NCBI GenBank assembly: GCA_008690995.1
Contig: VRMN01000002.1
Location: 744,001-808,000, forward strand
Source: Porphyridium purpureum
Taxonomy: Eukaryota; Rhodophyta; Bangiophyceae; Porphyridiales; Porphyridiaceae
Direction of reading: 5' to 3'
Length of the DNA stretch: 64,000 nt
A program made the position numbers and the translations under genes. Shown one piece after another: positions 16,491 through 23,491 of this stretch. The first letter of the stretch is position 1, and every line of letters begins with the position of its first letter. The notes under the pieces were generated by a model. The model saw nothing but the letters and a program-made list of their open reading frames with translations, was not told the DNA's origin and ran no database searches.

Positions 16491-18392
16491 ATGGACATCT
16501 GCGCCTTCGTGTCCTTTGCGCCATGTGCACGGAAGGTGTTGGCGCGGGGCGAGTCGACATGCTTGGTTCCTTGGCACGTGAACGCGCCGACGTGGCCCGC
16601 TCGAACCAGCGCGGGCGCCGTGAAGCGCTTTGCGCAAAACGCTGCGGGCGGTTCCAGCAGAGCTGAAGCGGACGAGCCGCCTGTACCGACCCCATTGCCG
16701 CCACCGGAACTGATCGCTTCAGCCGTGAGCACAAAGCTGTCGCTCGAAGAAGCCCTGGAGGACGCCACGTCGAGGGCTCTGCTCAAGCTGAAGCTGGCAG
16801 AGGGCCAAGCACCGTCGCTGGCAATTGTTTATGTATCCTCACTGTATACGGATCTGGCCACGAGCTTTTCCAATGCAAGCGATAGTGGAACAGGACGAAC
16901 TGCGTCGCGTTCTGGTGGCTCAGCATACTCGCCGGACGCCAGTCCGAATGGTGCGGCTCCCATGGCAAACCTGGTGCCTCTGCTTAGAGAGCTCGTGCCT
17001 GGCCTCCAAAATATTGTTGGATGCACCGTGAGCGGAGTCATCGGGTCACGTGGAGGCCGGGACACGGTTCCTAGTGATAATGAGCTCCGTGAGGGGCCAT
17101 CACGCTCAAACATTAGCAGTGCAGGCGCTTTCAGTGCGGAAGCGAGGCGGAAGCGATACTCGAAACCAGTTCCATCCGCTGAAATGCGTCTCGTGGATGA
17201 AATTGAGAAAGAGCCGGGTGTGTCTGTTACATTCTTGAACATTCCAGGCATTGGGTGCACAACTTTTGCCGTCACCGAGGACACACTGCCAGATTTAGAC
17301 TCATCTCCGGAGGTATGGGAGCAGCTGGTTTTCACGGGTCAGTCCGTGACCAACCAGGTGGATGCTGCTGAGACCGTTCCCACACCCGCAGACGTTTTTG
17401 CATTTCTGGTTTTAACGGAAAGCGACTCGGTGCAAACAGATTTTCCGAATAAGTTGCTACAGGGCCTTGATTACGCGTTCCCGCGCGCCGCGAAGCTGGG
17501 CGGTGAGGCAGCAGGGTTTGGAACCAGCTCCGGGAGTCTGATCTGCACGTTGCCGCGTGATGTCTTGCTTCGCACAAGCTCTGGTCTGCGTTCCAAAGGT
17601 GCAGTGGGAGTAGCGATACACAGAAGTGGACCGGCTCCTTCTGCTGCGGCAGAAACCGGTTCCTCAGCGAAGACGGAAAGGCGCCCCATCCTTCAATTCG
17701 AGACGCTAATTTCACATGGCTGTCGAGCGGTGGGGCCGGTATTCGTCATCGAAGGCGCTACGCGTCGCGGGTTGCTTCGAGTCCGCCCGGAGGGTGAAAC
17801 CAGCGCTTCGTCGTCCATGACGGCCGGTGGCAGCTTGAAATACTTGTTTGAGCGGGCTTCAAAGGCGGAGCAAACGCTCATTCAAAGCAGTTCGTTGTAT
17901 GTGGGCGTTATGCAGGACACATTCCAGCAAAAGTGGAACGACGACGACGTTGTTCTCACGCAAATGCTTGGGGTCGATGCGAGAGAAGGAAGTATTGAGC
18001 TCGGAAACCCTGTGCGCTCCGGGCAGCTGATGCGCTACTTTGTGGTCGATGCGTTCGAGGCCAAAGAGCGCCTGCAACGGCGTCTGAGCGGTTTCAAGGC
18101 GAGACAGCTGCAAGAGACGCTGCTACGCACATCCGGAGCAAACGACATGCGCGTGATTGGGGTGTGGGTCATTGCAGACAGGCTGCGTGGGAAGGCTCTG
18201 TATCGAGAGGAGTGCTGGGAAACGGATCGCGTGGCCGAATTTGTAGGGGGGAACTCGGGCCTTTCCATAAGTGGACTTTTCAGCGCTCATGAGTTGGGAT
18301 CATGGAAAGATGGATCGGGCATGTTGATTTCGTCACTCGGTCATAGTTTCAGCACCATTATTGGCGTTGTCCGCTATGGTCTCTCTGATTGA
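16491..18392 (+). CDS. FIST-domain (sensory) protein, probably plastid-targeted
   Basis: Product of 633 residues. The N-terminal 60 residues (MDICAFVSFAPCARKVLARG onward) are basic and Ala/Arg/Cys-rich with an early AFV motif, like other likely plastid proteins here. Next is a FIST_N domain (about 85-360) with LVPLLRELVPGLQNIVGCTV, AFLVLTESDS and AAKLGGEAAGFG, then FIST_C (about 395-610) with GDPVR-like ELGNPVRSGQLMRYFVVDA and ISGLFSAHELG. FIST proteins are thought to bind small ligands such as amino acids; in bacteria they are often fused to signalling domains, and stand-alone forms are found in algae. A Ser-rich insert splits FIST_N (about 205-230). No F-box is visible. Function in algae is unknown. 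Confidence 0.85.
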   Translation: MDICAFVSFAPCARKVLARGESTCLVPWHVNAPTWPARTSAGAVKRFAQNAAGGSSRAEADEPPVPTPLPPPELIASAVSTKLSLEEALEDATSRALLKLKLAEGQAPSLAIVYVSSLYTDLATSFSNASDSGTGRTASRSGGSAYSPDASPNGAAPMANLVPLLRELVPGLQNIVGCTVSGVIGSRGGRDTVPSDNELREGPSRSNISSAGAFSAEARRKRYSKPVPSAEMRLVDEIEKEPGVSVTFLNIPGIGCTTFAVTEDTLPDLDSSPEVWEQLVFTGQSVTNQVDAAETVPTPADVFAFLVLTESDSVQTDFPNKLLQGLDYAFPRAAKLGGEAAGFGTSSGSLICTLPRDVLLRTSSGLRSKGAVGVAIHRSGPAPSAAAETGSSAKTERRPILQFETLISHGCRAVGPVFVIEGATRRGLLRVRPEGETSASSSMTAGGSLKYLFERASKAEQTLIQSSSLYVGVMQDTFQQKWNDDDVVLTQMLGVDAREGSIELGNPVRSGQLMRYFVVDAFEAKERLQRRLSGFKARQLQETLLRTSGANDMRVIGVWVIADRLRGKALYREECWETDRVAEFVGGNSGLSISGLFSAHELGSWKDGSGMLISSLGHSFSTIIGVVRYGLSD

Positions 18393-18576: not shown

Positions 18577-20667
18577 CTACGCGGTCTGAGGGTAGTTGTA
18601 GGCCAGCAGGGAGTCTGGATCGAAACGATTTTTCTCGTGACAGACGTGCCCAAGCGTCAGTTCCTCAATCCGGTCCACTTCCATACTGCTGCCCACATAC
18701 AGCGGAACCGCCATATCCAGCGACCACGCACTAAGCTCCAAGAGTGGACGCTTACCCACACTGGCGCGACCTCCGGCGTGGCGTGCAATATAAGCCAGCG
18801 GCGCGGCGACGCTCAAGAACTGAGCCAGGTCCTTCTTGTGCGGGCCTGGCAACATAAGAATTCCTCCATTGATCAGCACCTTGTGAAAGTCGGAGACCAG
18901 GTTGTGCTCGTACCGCAGAATTCGACCGGAGCCCTCGGCTTCCAGCTCGGCCACGAACGCATTCACACCCTCTGGCGCATTCGGAAGCACCGAGGAGTCA
19001 ATCGAGTACACGGGTCCAGTTTCAGGGATGCGCACATGCTCTCGGCTCAGCACAAAATGCCCCGATGTGCGATCGAGCTTGAAGCCATGTACGCCGAACC
19101 CCATGCTGAACACAAGCTCAGCGGATGGTCCAAAAACACAGTAGCCTGCGGCCACTTGCTCGTAGCCTGTCCGCTGCAGCAAATCTGAAGAGTCGCCTGG
19201 TTTTCCAGGGGCCGACTTGCGATAGTACACTCCAAATATGTTCCCCATGCTGATACCCGGCGTTCCCATGAGCGGGTTGAAGACAACAATGTAGTTGCCC
19301 ACGTCCAGTCCGTCCTCGAGCGGCATTTCAGCCGACTCGGAAGAGAAAATGACGCAGCAGAGCCCGGAGGACGACAGCGAAGCGTGCAGCTGCGAGTTGG
19401 CGAAGTGCGTCAGCGCCGCACTGCTCATGTGCGGGTGGTCCGAGATGTATGCGGAGATGCACTTGCACGCAACACCGACTTCCGAAATGAGCAATGATAA
19501 ATCGTTCGAGTCGTGCGGGAACTTGCGCTGCTGCTGAGTGCAAAATCGCTTGATCGTCATCATCGAAATAGTCGGCGCAATCTCGGAAAACGACGGCGGG
19601 TCGATTTCAGTCATGTCCAGCATGCTTGAGGTTTTCTGCAGGCCCTTCTTGAACGCACCGAGTGCGCTAATAGGGCCACCGTACTTGGCTGATTCCTCGT
19701 CGATAATTTTCTGAGCTTGAGCGACTTCGATGTGCTTGTATGAGCCATCAATGGTTGTGTTCTGCACGTCGTGGTTCTTGTGCTGCACCTTGCCATTGAT
19801 GAGCTTACGCCACGCGTGGTAGCATTCGTCCACGATTTCCATGGCATAGTCGCGCGTCTGCACTTGCTCGCGGAACGCAAACATGTTGAGCGGTTTGCCG
19901 TCAGGTACCTTGTACGTGCGGAACCACGAGAACGTGGCGTGAATGAGCCCTGGCAAAAGCGTGTAAAGATCGTCCTTGTCGTTCAGCTTTTCTGCGATGG
20001 GATCCTTCACGTCAATGACCAGCACCTTCCAGTCCATCTCACCTTCGTCGATCATCCCGAGCACGCCAATCACCTTGACCTGCTTAACCTGACCGACGTA
20101 GCCGGCTTCCGAGCCCACCTCGCACACGTCCAGCGGATCGCCGTCACCGAGCGCGCCCGTCTCCATGTGGACCTGTGTCGGGTCCTCCCACGTCTGCGGG
20201 AAGCAGCCGTAGTTCCAGATGTAGCCCTTGTACGGATAGACGTTGTGCACGTAGCGCTTTTTCCCCTTCTTCTCATCCTGCACGATCGGCGCGAGCGGCT
20301 CCTTTGTCTTGAGCTCGAGCTTTGCGTTTGTCCAGCGCGGGATCTCGACAATCATGTTGAGGATGCCCTTCTCCTTGTCGACCCAGAGCGGAATATCATG
20401 CAGCGGGTTGACTGGCCCAAAGCCCTTCTTCATCATGAAGCTCTTGTAATTATCGCCCGTCCCGACGGGCAGCATCTCATACTCTGACGCCGCGGCGGTT
20501 GCCGGCAGAAGCGCAGCGCCGTCGCCATTCGGAGCCATCTGTCCGTTTCCGTCTGCGCCGTCCATCTCCCGCAGCCCCACTGCCCGACTCTTCTTCTTCT
20601 CCACACCGCTGTTGTCGTGACTGTTCTGCCCTTCACTCAATCCAGACGCCCGCCGCTTACTCGTCAT
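18577..20667 (-). CDS. Soluble inorganic pyrophosphatase fused to a degenerate fructose-1,6-bisphosphatase domain
   Basis: Product of 696 residues, one uninterrupted frame. Residues about 45-310 are a eukaryotic family I pyrophosphatase with an intact active site: KKRYVHNVYPYKGYIWNYGCFPQTW, the metal motif GDGDPLDVCEVG (Asp175, Asp177, Asp180) and VLVIDVKDP. After a linker of about 50 residues, residues about 355-690 follow FBPase along its whole length: FPHDSNDLSLLISEVGVACKCIS, GNYIVVFNPL, AAGYCVFGPSAELVFSMGFGV, NLVSDFHKVLINGG, VPLYVGSSMEVDRIEEL. Key metal ligands of FBPase are lost: the DPLDGSS motif reads NPLMGTP (Asn464, Met467) and the Glu of the YE(x)xPM motif is Val620. The FBPase half is probably non-catalytic. 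No organelle signal is seen, so cytosol is likely. The longer frame starts with GTG at 20703; the ATG at 20667 is used. Confidence 0.93.
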   Translation of the reverse strand: MTSKRRASGLSEGQNSHDNSGVEKKKSRAVGLREMDGADGNGQMAPNGDGAALLPATAAASEYEMLPVGTGDNYKSFMMKKGFGPVNPLHDIPLWVDKEKGILNMIVEIPRWTNAKLELKTKEPLAPIVQDEKKGKKRYVHNVYPYKGYIWNYGCFPQTWEDPTQVHMETGALGDGDPLDVCEVGSEAGYVGQVKQVKVIGVLGMIDEGEMDWKVLVIDVKDPIAEKLNDKDDLYTLLPGLIHATFSWFRTYKVPDGKPLNMFAFREQVQTRDYAMEIVDECYHAWRKLINGKVQHKNHDVQNTTIDGSYKHIEVAQAQKIIDEESAKYGGPISALGAFKKGLQKTSSMLDMTEIDPPSFSEIAPTISMMTIKRFCTQQQRKFPHDSNDLSLLISEVGVACKCISAYISDHPHMSSAALTHFANSQLHASLSSSGLCCVIFSSESAEMPLEDGLDVGNYIVVFNPLMGTPGISMGNIFGVYYRKSAPGKPGDSSDLLQRTGYEQVAAGYCVFGPSAELVFSMGFGVHGFKLDRTSGHFVLSREHVRIPETGPVYSIDSSVLPNAPEGVNAFVAELEAEGSGRILRYEHNLVSDFHKVLINGGILMLPGPHKKDLAQFLSVAAPLAYIARHAGGRASVGKRPLLELSAWSLDMAVPLYVGSSMEVDRIEELTLGHVCHEKNRFDPDSLLAYNYPQTA

Positions 20668-21517
20668 CGCCCACACACATTCCCCCCTACTCCCCCTTCC
20701 CACTCACCACCCCACACCACCATCTCTCATCCTTTTCCCCCTTCACCCTTTCCCTATCCCTTTTCTCACTTGCTACGGCTTTGTAATAGTTCCTTCTTAC
20801 TCATTCCTCATCCACAAACATAACACAAGCTTTATCTCCCACCCACTACTACTAATAAAACACCCAATATCCAATACTAAACACTAAATACCAAATACTT
20901 GACTACTAGTAACCATCCAATCACATCGGCCACCACCTATCAAAACGTGTGTTCTTCCATCATACGCACCGCACCGCACAATACAAAAGTGACGCGGGTT
21001 TGCAAAGGTACACTGAGAATAGCGCGCTGTACATCTAACAGAACACACGTGATGGCGGGGTGAGTACAGTTCGGCAAGGCGATGGCACGCGGTGGTGTTT
21101 GACTGGTTAAGCGGGAAGGAATCTGGTCGCAGCGCATGGTTGTTTGGATGGTTCCTGCAGCCGGCTACCTTTCGCGGCCGAGGACGACAAGCGCAGGGGC
21201 CGCGTGCGGCGTCGAGCGTCGCGTCCCGGTCGTGCATTATCGCAAAGCGCTGGTTTGCGGCCGGTTGTGAGCGAGCGGCCGTGGTCGTGCCCGCCAGCAG
21301 TCGCGCGCTTCAAACTTATCGGCTGCAACGCTTATCGGTTACAAAACGCGCCGTGAGCATGTGAGCCGGTCTGGATGCAGCGCGGGTGTACAGTGCGAGT
21401 GGACTGCAGGGTGTACTGTTGGGTGTACGGTGTGGGTGAGGTGGGTTGGGATTTGGGGAGCGGACGTTGGAGCTGAGCGAAGCGGTTGGGAGAGTTCGCG
21501 CTTGGAAGGAGCGAGCG
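20668..21517. promoter_or_regulatory. Divergent promoter region, pyrimidine-rich, with GTAC motifs
   Basis: This 850-bp spacer lies between the pyrophosphatase fusion (minus) and the NUMOD3 gene (plus). Bases 20680-20880 are C/T/A-rich, which on the minus strand gives a purine-rich leader for the fusion gene. GTACAGT occurs at 21064 and GTACAGTG at 21388; GTACTGT at 21413 and GTAC at 21425. Small frames have no protein-like features. Confidence 0.4.
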
Positions 21518-23491
21518 ATGCGTGATGAGAATGAGCGTGCGCGTCGCGGGATGGAATGTTTCGGGTCTCCGCCTGTGCCTGCGTCCGAGGCACTGAGTGG
21601 GTATGTGTCTATGAGAAAGGCGCGCGTGGTGGCTGGGCTTCATGGATGGAACGCAAGAACGGCCGCCGTCGCTCGCGTCTTGCGGCAGCGTGCGTTGAGC
21701 AGCGCGGTTGACACAGCTCGGTTGGGTGGCCGAGACGGCTTGCGTTCGGCGTCCTTTCTGAACGCCAGAGACAGGCGGCGGTCAAGTTGTGGAACTGCAA
21801 GACTTGCGGTCGCGCGAGGCGAGCAGGGCTCGTCCTCTTCACCGTCACCCTCGCCCACAGCACCCACAGCGCCTACAACACCCACAGCGCCTACAACACC
21901 CACACCAACCGCCGCACGGATAGATGAACCACCCCAGGTGTCGCATGTTGTGGAAGAGCAAGGCCCTTCCAGAAAAAGCATACCCTCATGCCGAATGGCG
22001 CGCGACGCTTTGTCTCGGGCCCACGCTGGATCGAGTTCGTCTGAAACCGAGAACGGGATAGAGGTCAAAGACACTCGGGACGTGGAGCATGCGGAAGATT
22101 TTGACAGCGTGGACGATGCAGAAGACTCGGACGGCTTGGACGATGCAGGAGACTCGGACGGCTTGGACGATGCAGAAGACTCGGACGGCTTGGACGACGA
22201 GGAAAATTCGGATGGCTCGGGCAGTGCCGAAGATTCTGATGACGTCAGCTGTTCATTGCAGGCAAAGCCGGTACGGCGAGGTGGACCAGCAAGGGGCCGC
22301 CAACTGTCTGCCGAGACAAGACGGAGGATCTCCCAGTCCATGATAGGGAAAGTGGTCCCGGAAGAATTGAGACAGAAAATCTCAGCCAAATTACGAGGAC
22401 GCGTGCCATGGAACAAGGGTAAGAAGCTATCACCGGAGACCCGCGCAAAGATGTCCGAGGCTCGGTATGGCAAACGGCCCTGGAACTATGGCGGAAGGCT
22501 GTTGGAAGAGCACCGACGGCGCATTTCGATGGCGATGCAATCTGGGCGGAAGCGTATCTCGGACGAGACGCGCAAGAAGCTGCAAATGGCGCGACGCTTG
22601 CCAGTCGACCCAGTGATAACTACTTCGCATGATGGCGGCGCTGAGTCGCTGCGCGGCCGCGATAAGGGCAAGATCATCGATTACCCGCTGGTCGATACGA
22701 AAGACATTCATCAGTTTGTGATGCTCCGCCGTGAACTCGAGGCCTGGTCAGGTGAGTTCTATTCACGCGTGGGTCGGCGTCCGACGATGACGGATATTCG
22801 CAGGCTTGCGCCCATGGACTTGCTCAGAAAATTTGAGCGATACACAAAGCTACGCAAAAGCATCAGAGGCCTAGCGGTGAATGTGTATGGGGATGTGTTC
22901 GACTTTAATGCTATTCGGCCGGACCCTCCGGGCTTTTCAACGCCTCGTTCGCAAGACTGGGTGTCAATGGCAACGACCCAGCGTGGCCACAAGCCAGGTG
23001 GTGGCGACGTTTCACTGGGCGACCCGGGCTCCATGGCGATGAATCGCTGGTCTGGAACTCCCGGTGCACTGCCACCACCGCCTGGAGATGAGCACTCGAA
23101 AGAAACAACCCCCAAGACATCGTCCGGTCTGTCTGCGAACGAATTTCGCGCGCTCGGCAAGTACCGCTTGATGGAAACGTACGACGTGCATCGCATGATG
23201 CAACTTCGCCGGGAAGCCGAACCGTGGCTGAACCGTTTTGCGCGTAAGCACGGCGCCCGTGCTGAATTGCGTGATTTAGACCTGATCGATGACGCCGCGC
23301 TTCCCGAGACAGAGAGGCGCGAGCTGCGTACGGTGAAGAATTATCTGGAACTGAAGGCCAAGTCGAAGGGACTCCTGAGTGACGTGCTCAACATCGATCC
23401 GGACGACCCGCAAGCGCTCGAGAAATTTGCCGAAAAGGGCGAAAAGCTGTTGCGCAAGGTCCAGGACGCTGGCGAGCATCCGGAAAATTGA
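21518..23491 (+). CDS. NUMOD3 DNA-binding-motif protein with an acidic repeat and a duplicated C-terminal module
   Basis: Product of 657 residues. Residues about 259-330 hold tandem NUMOD3-type motifs (LSAETRRRISQSMIGKVVPE, LRGRVPWNKGKKLSPETR, MSEARYGKRPWNYGG), short modular DNA-binding units known from homing nucleases and plastid-targeted algal and plant proteins. No GIY-YIG or HNH nuclease is visible. Before them is a PTAPTT-rich stretch and an acidic tandem repeat of DDAEDSDGL. After them a module of about 60 residues occurs twice: D(I)HQFVMLRRELEAWSGEFYSRVGRRPTMTDI near 22693 and D(V)HRMMQLRREAEPWLNRFARKHGARAELRDL near 23179. Basic, Ala-rich N-terminal residues (MRKARVVAGLHGWNARTAAV at 21611) could be an organelle signal. 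The longer frame starts with TTG; ATG choices are 21518, 21551 and 21611. Function is unknown, perhaps organelle nucleic-acid binding. Confidence 0.75.
   Translation: MRDENERARRGMECFGSPPVPASEALSGYVSMRKARVVAGLHGWNARTAAVARVLRQRALSSAVDTARLGGRDGLRSASFLNARDRRRSSCGTARLAVARGEQGSSSSPSPSPTAPTAPTTPTAPTTPTPTAARIDEPPQVSHVVEEQGPSRKSIPSCRMARDALSRAHAGSSSSETENGIEVKDTRDVEHAEDFDSVDDAEDSDGLDDAGDSDGLDDAEDSDGLDDEENSDGSGSAEDSDDVSCSLQAKPVRRGGPARGRQLSAETRRRISQSMIGKVVPEELRQKISAKLRGRVPWNKGKKLSPETRAKMSEARYGKRPWNYGGRLLEEHRRRISMAMQSGRKRISDETRKKLQMARRLPVDPVITTSHDGGAESLRGRDKGKIIDYPLVDTKDIHQFVMLRRELEAWSGEFYSRVGRRPTMTDIRRLAPMDLLRKFERYTKLRKSIRGLAVNVYGDVFDFNAIRPDPPGFSTPRSQDWVSMATTQRGHKPGGGDVSLGDPGSMAMNRWSGTPGALPPPPGDEHSKETTPKTSSGLSANEFRALGKYRLMETYDVHRMMQLRREAEPWLNRFARKHGARAELRDLDLIDDAALPETERRELRTVKNYLELKAKSKGLLSDVLNIDPDDPQALEKFAEKGEKLLRKVQDAGEHPEN
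22112..22219 (+). repeat. 27-bp coding minisatellite (DDAEDSDGL units)
   Basis: Three near-exact 27-bp units at 22112, 22139 and 22166 and a diverged fourth at 22193 encode an acidic repeat within the NUMOD3 protein. A second short coding repeat of 18 bp (PTAPTT units) lies at about 21855-21905. Confidence 0.9.

What the first reader, a model, noticed from the sequence alone, without database searches (positions are those of the whole stretch)
18577..20667. Active pyrophosphatase fused to a catalytically dead fructose-1,6-bisphosphatase
One unbroken 696-residue frame joins a complete soluble pyrophosphatase to a full-length FBPase-like domain. The pyrophosphatase keeps its metal Asp triad. 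The FBPase half keeps the scaffold and the substrate-side NLVSDFHK-type segment but loses metal ligands equivalent to pig Asp118, Asp121 and Glu280 (Asn464, Met467, Val620). I know of no such fusion as a described enzyme. A pseudo-FBPase could sense sugar phosphates or AMP, or tether the pyrophosphatase near gluconeogenesis and UDP-glucose-based floridean starch synthesis, where PPi is released. The regulatory idea is inference.
Basis: partly seen in the sequence, partly recalled or inferred. Interest (0 to 1): 0.85.

Follow-up and report, generated by a model that had tools for sequence, protein, structure and literature searches.

The report
Pyrophosphatase fused to dead FBPase
In red algae, and apparently also in glaucophyte algae, an enzyme that clears pyrophosphate carries a permanently attached, catalytically dead copy of a sugar-phosphate enzyme; the pairing is old and well conserved and looks like a built-in regulator rather than an accident.

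Summary
One uninterrupted 696-codon frame on the minus strand (18577-20667) encodes a eukaryotic family I soluble pyrophosphatase, a disordered linker and an FBPase fold. It is no local freak: 49 of 73 hits to the FBPase half (the window protein included) carry both domains. Those with a readable name are red algae; one more has a Cyanophora-style gene identifier. Several are transcripts. The PPase keeps all 13 catalytic residues wherever covered. The FBPase half is dead in all 50 members: Glu97, Asp118 and Asp121 are gone, a catalytic loop is about 14 residues shorter, most substrate contacts are lost. Glu280 is kept in 41 of 50, but not in the window protein. The former AMP effector pocket is the reverse: altered but nearly invariant (block-shift fraction 0.010; its excess over unfused FBPases only marginal, 0.063). 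The divergent linker holds a near-invariant Ser/Thr (50 of 50) with Arg/Lys at -3 (48 of 50), an SnRK1/CDPK-type site. My reading: a regulatory pseudoenzyme controlling PPi hydrolysis. Identity and conservation are shown; regulation is inferred. Two database annotations name the fusion; four paper searches aimed at it listed no description.

The parts
18577..20667 (-). Whole fused gene, single ORF, 696 aa (P0001)
20458..20667 (-). N-terminal extension, residues 1-70, mostly low confidence/disordered; no obvious plastid transit peptide (inference, no predictor run)
   Evidence: AF2 pLDDT below 50 for residues 1-3 and 5-57
19723..20451 (-). Family I soluble pyrophosphatase, residues 73-315; E108, K116, E118, R138, Y153, D175, D177, D180, D207, D212, K214, Y252, K253 all present
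   Evidence: yeast PPase alignment 73-315, E 4.5e-88; residue counts
19567..19722 (-). Linker, residues 316-367, 15-43% identical to the six relatives compared
   Evidence: pLDDT below 50 at 343-354
19612..19641 (-). SnRK1/CDPK-type motif LQKTSSMLDM, residues 343-352, candidate phospho-Ser348
   Evidence: consensus from PMC4992866 passages
18643..19563 (-). Pseudo-FBPase fold, residues 369-675
19495..19518 (-). Effector-loop segment PHDSNDLS, residues 384-391 (pig AMP-site residues 24-31)
   Evidence: modelled with only moderate confidence (pLDDT 64 for 381-390)
19255..19278 (-). Former metal motif DPLDGSS, now NPLMGTPG, residues 464-471

Best explanation
It is a eukaryotic family I soluble pyrophosphatase with a C-terminal regulatory pseudoenzyme derived from fructose-1,6-bisphosphatase. 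SHOWN (sequence and comparison): one ORF; an intact PPase active site; an FBPase fold whose metal and catalytic residues, most substrate residues and dynamic loop are lost in every member compared; strong conservation of an altered AMP effector pocket; and a near-invariant basophilic-kinase-type serine in an otherwise divergent linker. INFERRED: the protein is the cell's main cytosolic soluble PPase; its pseudo-FBPase half assembles into an FBPase-like dimer or tetramer, binds a metabolite (AMP or a related phosphate ligand) in the old effector pocket and, together with phosphorylation of the linker serine (Ser348) by an SnRK1/AMPK- or CDPK-type kinase, raises or lowers PPi hydrolysis. That would let the cell keep PPi for PPi-using enzymes (PPi-type PFK, H+-PPases) or remove it to drive UDP-glucose and floridean starch synthesis.
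For: Both domains in 49 of 73 hits, the window protein included, plus P0111. The 13 PPase catalytic residues are present in every member covered, 44 to 49 of 50, the rest being gaps. E97, D118, D121 and D74 are changed in 50 of 50 (D74 to Glu in 2), E98 in 49 of 50; K274 is L in 48 of 50. Weighted entropy, 50 fusion members versus 57 unfused hits: metal/catalytic 1.94 v 0.00 bits; substrate 1.81 v 0.47; AMP pocket 0.47 v 1.53. With the literature AMP set and a block-shift control, 1.0% of placements are as conserved as the pocket; 2.9% and 2.6% are as variable as the catalytic and substrate sets. Linker: S 49 and T 1 of 50 at Ser348, R/K at -3 in 48 of 50; strict motif in 46 of 50, against 4.6% expected per shuffled linker. 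Two family I PPase genes were found in the genome, the other (L002) with an N-terminal stretch that looks like a presequence (inference). The genome also has 3 H+-PPase loci, a PFK with GGDD plus PKTIDND (L098), two 6PF2K loci and one AMPKBI locus. Model: ten-residue blocks of the FBPase half from 391 to 680 have pLDDT 84-97.
Against: No ligand binding, oligomer, phosphorylation or activity data exist here. K112 to N and R140 to Y remove two usual AMP contacts, so the ligand may not be AMP, or the conservation may reflect the subunit interface near the same helices. The pocket's extra conservation over unfused FBPases is only marginal by the block-shift control (fraction 0.063). The effector loop is modelled less well than the rest of the half (pLDDT 64 for 381-390). 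The linker motif is absent in strict form in 4 of 50: both Rhodosorus and both glaucophyte-type sequences, so phosphorylation cannot be universal. Members are not independent: 50 sequences weigh as about 11 at 80% identity. Cytosolic location and the presequence of L002 were judged by eye.
Confidence: 0.55

Rival explanations
1. Structural scaffold only: the dead FBPase half is an oligomerisation or docking domain (with itself, with genuine FBPase, or with the second pseudo-FBPase L009) that places PPase near gluconeogenesis and UDP-glucose synthesis; no ligand is sensed.
For: R243, whose equivalent in FBPase reaches the neighbouring subunit's active site (PMC5639204 passages), is invariant in 50 of 50 although the site is dead. 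A second stand-alone pseudo-FBPase, L009, exists in the same genome. The conserved windows 383-396 and 474-485 include the effector loop, which lies toward an FBPase subunit interface.
Against: A pure scaffold need not keep effector-pocket polar residues such as N458 (49 of 50), Y459 (50 of 50) and S387 (S 48, T 2 of 50).
Confidence: 0.28
2. The FBPase half retains or has gained another catalytic activity (for example another phosphatase) using a different metal arrangement.
For: E280 is kept in 41 of 50; L120 (50 of 50), G122 (48 of 50) and R243 (50 of 50) are nearly invariant. The window protein has Glu at the E98 position.
Against: E97, D118, D121 and D74 are changed and the dynamic loop is shortened in all 50, and the remaining site is more variable than most of the domain.
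Confidence: 0.07
3. Degenerating passenger: the FBPase half is a functionless fused remnant in slow decay.
For: Three unlabelled PPases carry what looks like a strongly eroded remnant of about 165 aa.
Against: In the six relatives compared, from the other Porphyridium and more distant reds to the Cyanophora-type protein, the half is 51-73% identical to that of P0001, with specific invariant sites.
Confidence: 0.05
4. Two genes joined by assembly or gene-model error.
For: Other long PPase-containing proteins (for example P0130, P0134) look like merges with unrelated genes (my guess).
Against: No N bases, a single ORF, a 2.4 Mb contig, and the same architecture in 48 other database clusters, transcripts among them.
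Confidence: 0.01

Closest known systems
Eukaryotic family I soluble pyrophosphatase (yeast IPP1, human PPA1)
   Same: Whole PPase half: about 50% identical to yeast, E 4.5e-88, all 13 active-site residues
   Different: Carries about 380 further C-terminal residues with an FBPase fold; each of the 60 PDB sequences shown (of 80 matched) matches one half only
Class I fructose-1,6-bisphosphatase (E. coli Fbp 2gq1, mammalian FBP1, plant FBPases)
   Different: Metal ligands, catalytic loop and most substrate contacts lost; effector pocket altered but conserved
CBS-domain pyrophosphatases of bacteria (family II)
   Different: Different catalytic family (family II, PMC7226116 abstract start) and an unrelated regulatory domain (CBS)
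Trypanosomatid acidocalcisomal PPase (5cuy, 5c5v)
   Same: A family I PPase with an extra domain (PPase match at 198-405 of a 414 aa chain)
   Different: The extra part is N-terminal; I recall it as an EF-hand domain, unrelated to FBPase
Papaver pollen soluble PPase p26.1
   Same: A soluble PPase that is inhibited under signalling, with phosphosites that alter activity (PMC9796540 passages, incl. the title of its reference Eaves 2017)
   Different: No fused FBPase known to me (recalled)

Membership tests
Family I soluble pyrophosphatase | Pfam PF00719 above cut-off and yeast active-site residues E48, K56, E58, R78, Y93, D115, D117, D120, D147, D152, K154, Y192, K193 (list recalled, mapped through the alignment) | tested here: met
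   all 13 present in P0001 and in every member covered
Family I soluble pyrophosphatase | Hydrolyses PPi | not testable with these tools
   needs assay
Class I fructose-1,6-bisphosphatase (active enzyme) | FBPase fold | tested here: met
Class I fructose-1,6-bisphosphatase (active enzyme) | Metal ligands E97, D118, D121, E280 (roles from PMC3785478 and PMC5639204 passages) | tested here: not met
   S443, N464, M467, V620
Class I fructose-1,6-bisphosphatase (active enzyme) | Dynamic catalytic loop 52-71 with D68 (PMC5639204 passages) | tested here: not met
   segment 12 instead of 26 residues in 49 of 50, 10 in the other
Class I fructose-1,6-bisphosphatase (active enzyme) | Substrate residues N212, Y215, R243, Y244, Y264, K274, R276 (list recalled; the R243-equivalent role is in PMC5639204) | tested here: not met
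   of these only R243 and Y244 are kept in P0001
AMP-regulated FBPase effector site | V17, T27, E29, L30, T31, K112, Y113 (PMC3785478) and R140 (PMC5639204) | tested here: inconclusive
   T377, S387, D389, L390, S391, N458, Y459, Y482: conserved in the family, but K112 and R140 are changed; binding not tested
SnRK1/AMPK substrate | Motif [MLVFI]x[RKH]xxSxxx[LFIMV] (PMC4992866 passages) | tested here: met
   LQKTSSMLDM at 343-352; the same paper notes that CDPK motifs look alike
SnRK1/AMPK substrate | Phosphorylated in vivo | not testable with these tools
   needs phosphoproteomics

The most novel reading that the evidence does not exclude
A metabolite-sensing pseudo-FBPase, phospho-gated through its linker, sets cytosolic pyrophosphate in red algae and glaucophytes, where it sits on the only soluble cytosolic PPase. 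The fusion, with its FBPase half already dead in the common ancestor of these algae, is a rare genomic character that unites them (or was ancestral to Archaeplastida and lost in green plants), and stripped-down versions survive in other eukaryotes.
Probability: 0.3. Interest if true: 0.87.

Novelty: new variant of a known kind. Interest (0 to 1): 0.72.

Why it matters
Pyrophosphate removal drives biosynthesis, and I know of no description of how red algae control it while making starch from UDP-glucose outside the plastid (pathway: PMC8703398 passages). A built-in dead FBPase on the soluble PPase gives a concrete, testable control point linking gluconeogenesis, energy status and starch. It is also an old and clean case of an enzyme turned regulator: the active site decayed while the effector pocket stayed nearly fixed. 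As a shared fusion with shared active-site loss it may serve as a rare marker for the disputed branching of red algae, glaucophytes and green plants (dispute recalled).

Tried and rejected
Assembly or gene-model artefact: rejected on relatives and transcripts. Loss of E280 as a family trait: rejected, 41 of 50 keep E. Sugar sensing at the old substrate site: disfavoured. P0111 as sister to red algae is weak (83/68), so its lineage is not claimed.

Remnant FBPase in P0172, P0167 and P0180: the three-sequence profile matches the FBPase half at 95.2% probability, E 2.7e-8, reversed control 0.1%. Singly, P0167 (18.2 bits) and P0172 (9.2) beat every shuffle that got a score (375 and 331 of 500 made), P0180 does not (4.1 against a best shuffle of 4.4). 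Pfam sees no FBPase in them, and Foldseek with the P0172 model listed only PPases in the 50 rows shown, so the fold claim is unconfirmed. Absence of the fusion from other lineages is not shown: one search scored only 7999 candidates and listed 120 of 184 hits.

Papers: ten searches ran. Four aimed at the fusion; one at setting; five at side topics. No listing showed a paper on the fusion; most subscription journals are not held.

Full report
WHAT WAS CHECKED. The frame 18577-20667 lies on the minus strand and encodes 696 aa without a stop. The region has no N. The genome held is 22.16 Mb in 46 contigs and carries no name. The closest relative is a transcriptome protein under taxid 2792, Porphyridium aerugineum, 70% identical over the FBPase half, so a Porphyridium is likely; the species name purpureum would be recall.

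ARCHITECTURE. Pfam places Pyrophosphatase at 105-286, the FBPase N-terminal domain at 370-542 and the FBPase C-terminal domain at 547-670, all far over cut-off. Yeast PPase aligns over 73-315. The AlphaFold2 model (79-row alignment, mean pLDDT 81.3, pTM 0.75) gives a well-ordered FBPase half from residue 391 on, only moderate confidence at 381-390 (64, the effector loop), weaker stretches inside the PPase half (about 141-150 and 241-270), and a disordered N terminus and linker. Foldseek finds both folds; the VIA-align list covers only the FBPase half.

NOT A LOCAL FREAK. A search with the FBPase half returned 73 proteins, the window's own included; the first 50 form one group, and 49 of the 73 carry both PPase and FBPase domains. 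The exception among the 50 is P0045 from Cyanidiococcus, a 401 aa FBPase-only model. Readable names are Porphyridium, Agarophyton, Gracilaria, Rhodosorus, Galdieria and Cyanidiococcus, red algae (Porphyridium and Rhodosorus looked up; the others recalled). P0048 has an identifier of the style used for Cyanophora paradoxa in PMC12449267 (one passage; a glaucophyte), and P0047 is 77% identical to it over the FBPase half. Most of the rest are unlabelled contigs. A search with P0048 gave no further fusion. A search with a full-length profile (120 of 184 hits listed) added P0111, an unlabelled transcript with both domains. Several members are transcripts, which argues for one mRNA. The fused halves form one clade, with glaucophyte-type and red sequences as separate supported groups (13 and 17 of the 50 used, plus P0111).

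THE FBPASE HALF IS DEAD IN EVERY MEMBER COMPARED. On an alignment of 116 rows (50 fusion-family members, 59 other hits, E. coli Fbp, six own-genome paralogues): E97 is S/T/A in 50 of 50, D118 is N/T/S in 50 of 50, D121 is another residue in 50 of 50, D74 is not Asp in 50 of 50 (Glu in 2), E98 is lost in 49 of 50 (kept in the window protein as E444), K274 is L in 48 of 50; E280 is kept in 41 of 50 and is V in the window protein. The dynamic-loop segment is 12 residues in 49 of 50 and 10 in one, against 26 or more in the 57 unfused hits compared (two further unfused hits, P0073 and P0108, were set aside because they are themselves pseudo-FBPases). Roles of metal and AMP residues were read in passages of PMC3785478 and PMC5639204; substrate residues are recalled.

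WHERE SELECTION ACTS. Weighted entropy in the fusion family is 1.94 bits at metal/catalytic positions and 1.81 at substrate positions, above the all-column mean of 1.20, but 0.47 at the AMP pocket. With the AMP set as given in the literature and a control that slides the same blocks along the domain, 1.0% of placements are as conserved as the pocket, and 2.9% and 2.6% are as variable as the catalytic and substrate sets. Against this: the gain in conservation over unfused FBPases at the pocket is only marginal by the same control (0.063), the 50 members weigh as about 11, and the same loop lies toward a subunit interface. The pocket is not an ordinary AMP site: K112 is N in 49 of 50 and R140 is Y in 48 of 50. 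In Leishmania FBPase K112 is also replaced and R140 no longer binds AMP, yet AMP still binds, more weakly (PMC5639204 passages).

LINKER. Linker identity of P0001 to six relatives is 15-43%, yet the column of Ser348 is S in 49 and T in 1 of 50, with R or K at -3 in 48 of 50. The strict motif, which fits the published SnRK1 target motif (a motif that the same paper says resembles that of CDPKs; PMC4992866 passages), is present in 46 of 50; both Rhodosorus and both glaucophyte-type sequences lack it. An AMPKBI domain (PF04739), part of AMPK/SnRK1 beta subunits (recalled), occurs once in the genome.

SETTING. Six-frame searches found two family I PPase loci, this one and L002 (302 aa with a presequence-like start, judged by eye), three H+-PPases, two 6PF2K and three PFK loci, one of them (L098) with the GGDD and PKTIDND motifs that I recall as PPi-type. 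Six other FBPase/SBPase-family loci were found, five with an intact DPLDG motif. So the fused protein is probably the only non-plastid soluble PPase of family I; that is inference.

MECHANISM. I commit to a regulatory pseudoenzyme (0.55). Shown: domain make-up, loss of FBPase catalytic residues, preserved PPase catalytic residues, conserved altered effector pocket, conserved linker serine. Inferred: ligand, direction of control, kinase, cytosolic place, oligomer. The strongest rival is a ligand-free scaffold (0.28).

REDUCED RELATIVES. Three unlabelled proteins (P0167, P0172, P0180) are PPases with a roughly 165-residue C-terminal stretch; their joint profile matches the FBPase half at 95.2% probability, the reversed control at 0.1%. 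The aligned parts are the first helices with the effector loop and the central strands. Single-sequence support is good for P0167, fair for P0172 and absent for P0180. Pfam and the 50 Foldseek rows shown did not detect FBPase.

KNOWN OR NOT. Two annotations name the fusion (P0004, 'inorganic pyrophosphatase fused with fructose-1 6-bisphosphatase', Gracilaria domingensis; P0018, 'fructose-1,6-bisphosphatase/inorganic pyrophosphatase'). Of ten paper searches, four aimed at the fusion and none listed a paper on it; the library lacks most subscription journals. The domain fusion is thus recorded in databases; I found no description of its family-wide deadness, the conserved pocket or the linker motif in those searches.

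Noticed in passing
L009 (G000:C43:5430639-5431136, minus): A second, stand-alone pseudo-FBPase of 343 aa: E97 is K, D118 is S, D121 is S, while E280 and a TGEL effector-loop sequence are kept. P0108 and P0073 are its kin. It groups with the fused half in trees, possibly by long-branch attraction.
   Followed up: partly
P0167, P0172, P0180 (database proteins): Pyrophosphatases with what looks like an eroded FBPase remnant at the C terminus, from unlabelled sources.
   Followed up: partly
P0068 (773 aa, 49 member sequences): FBPase domains together with PF01937 in one protein, another FBPase fusion.
   Followed up: no
P0110 (602 aa): Two PPase domains in tandem in one frame, judged by reading the sequence.
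   Followed up: no
window 16491-18392 +: Neighbouring 633 aa ORF with a FIST N domain (E 3.4e-08) and a FIST_C match under its cut-off.
   Followed up: no
window 21446-23491 +: 681 aa ORF with three NUMOD3 motif matches (E 1.3e-17), a motif that I recall from homing endonucleases.
   Followed up: no
E. coli K-12 fbp region, L010: fbp lies a few kb from ytfQ; I recall ppa next to ytfQ, so the two genes would be near neighbours in E. coli. The PPase half here is of eukaryotic type, so probably coincidence.
   Followed up: no
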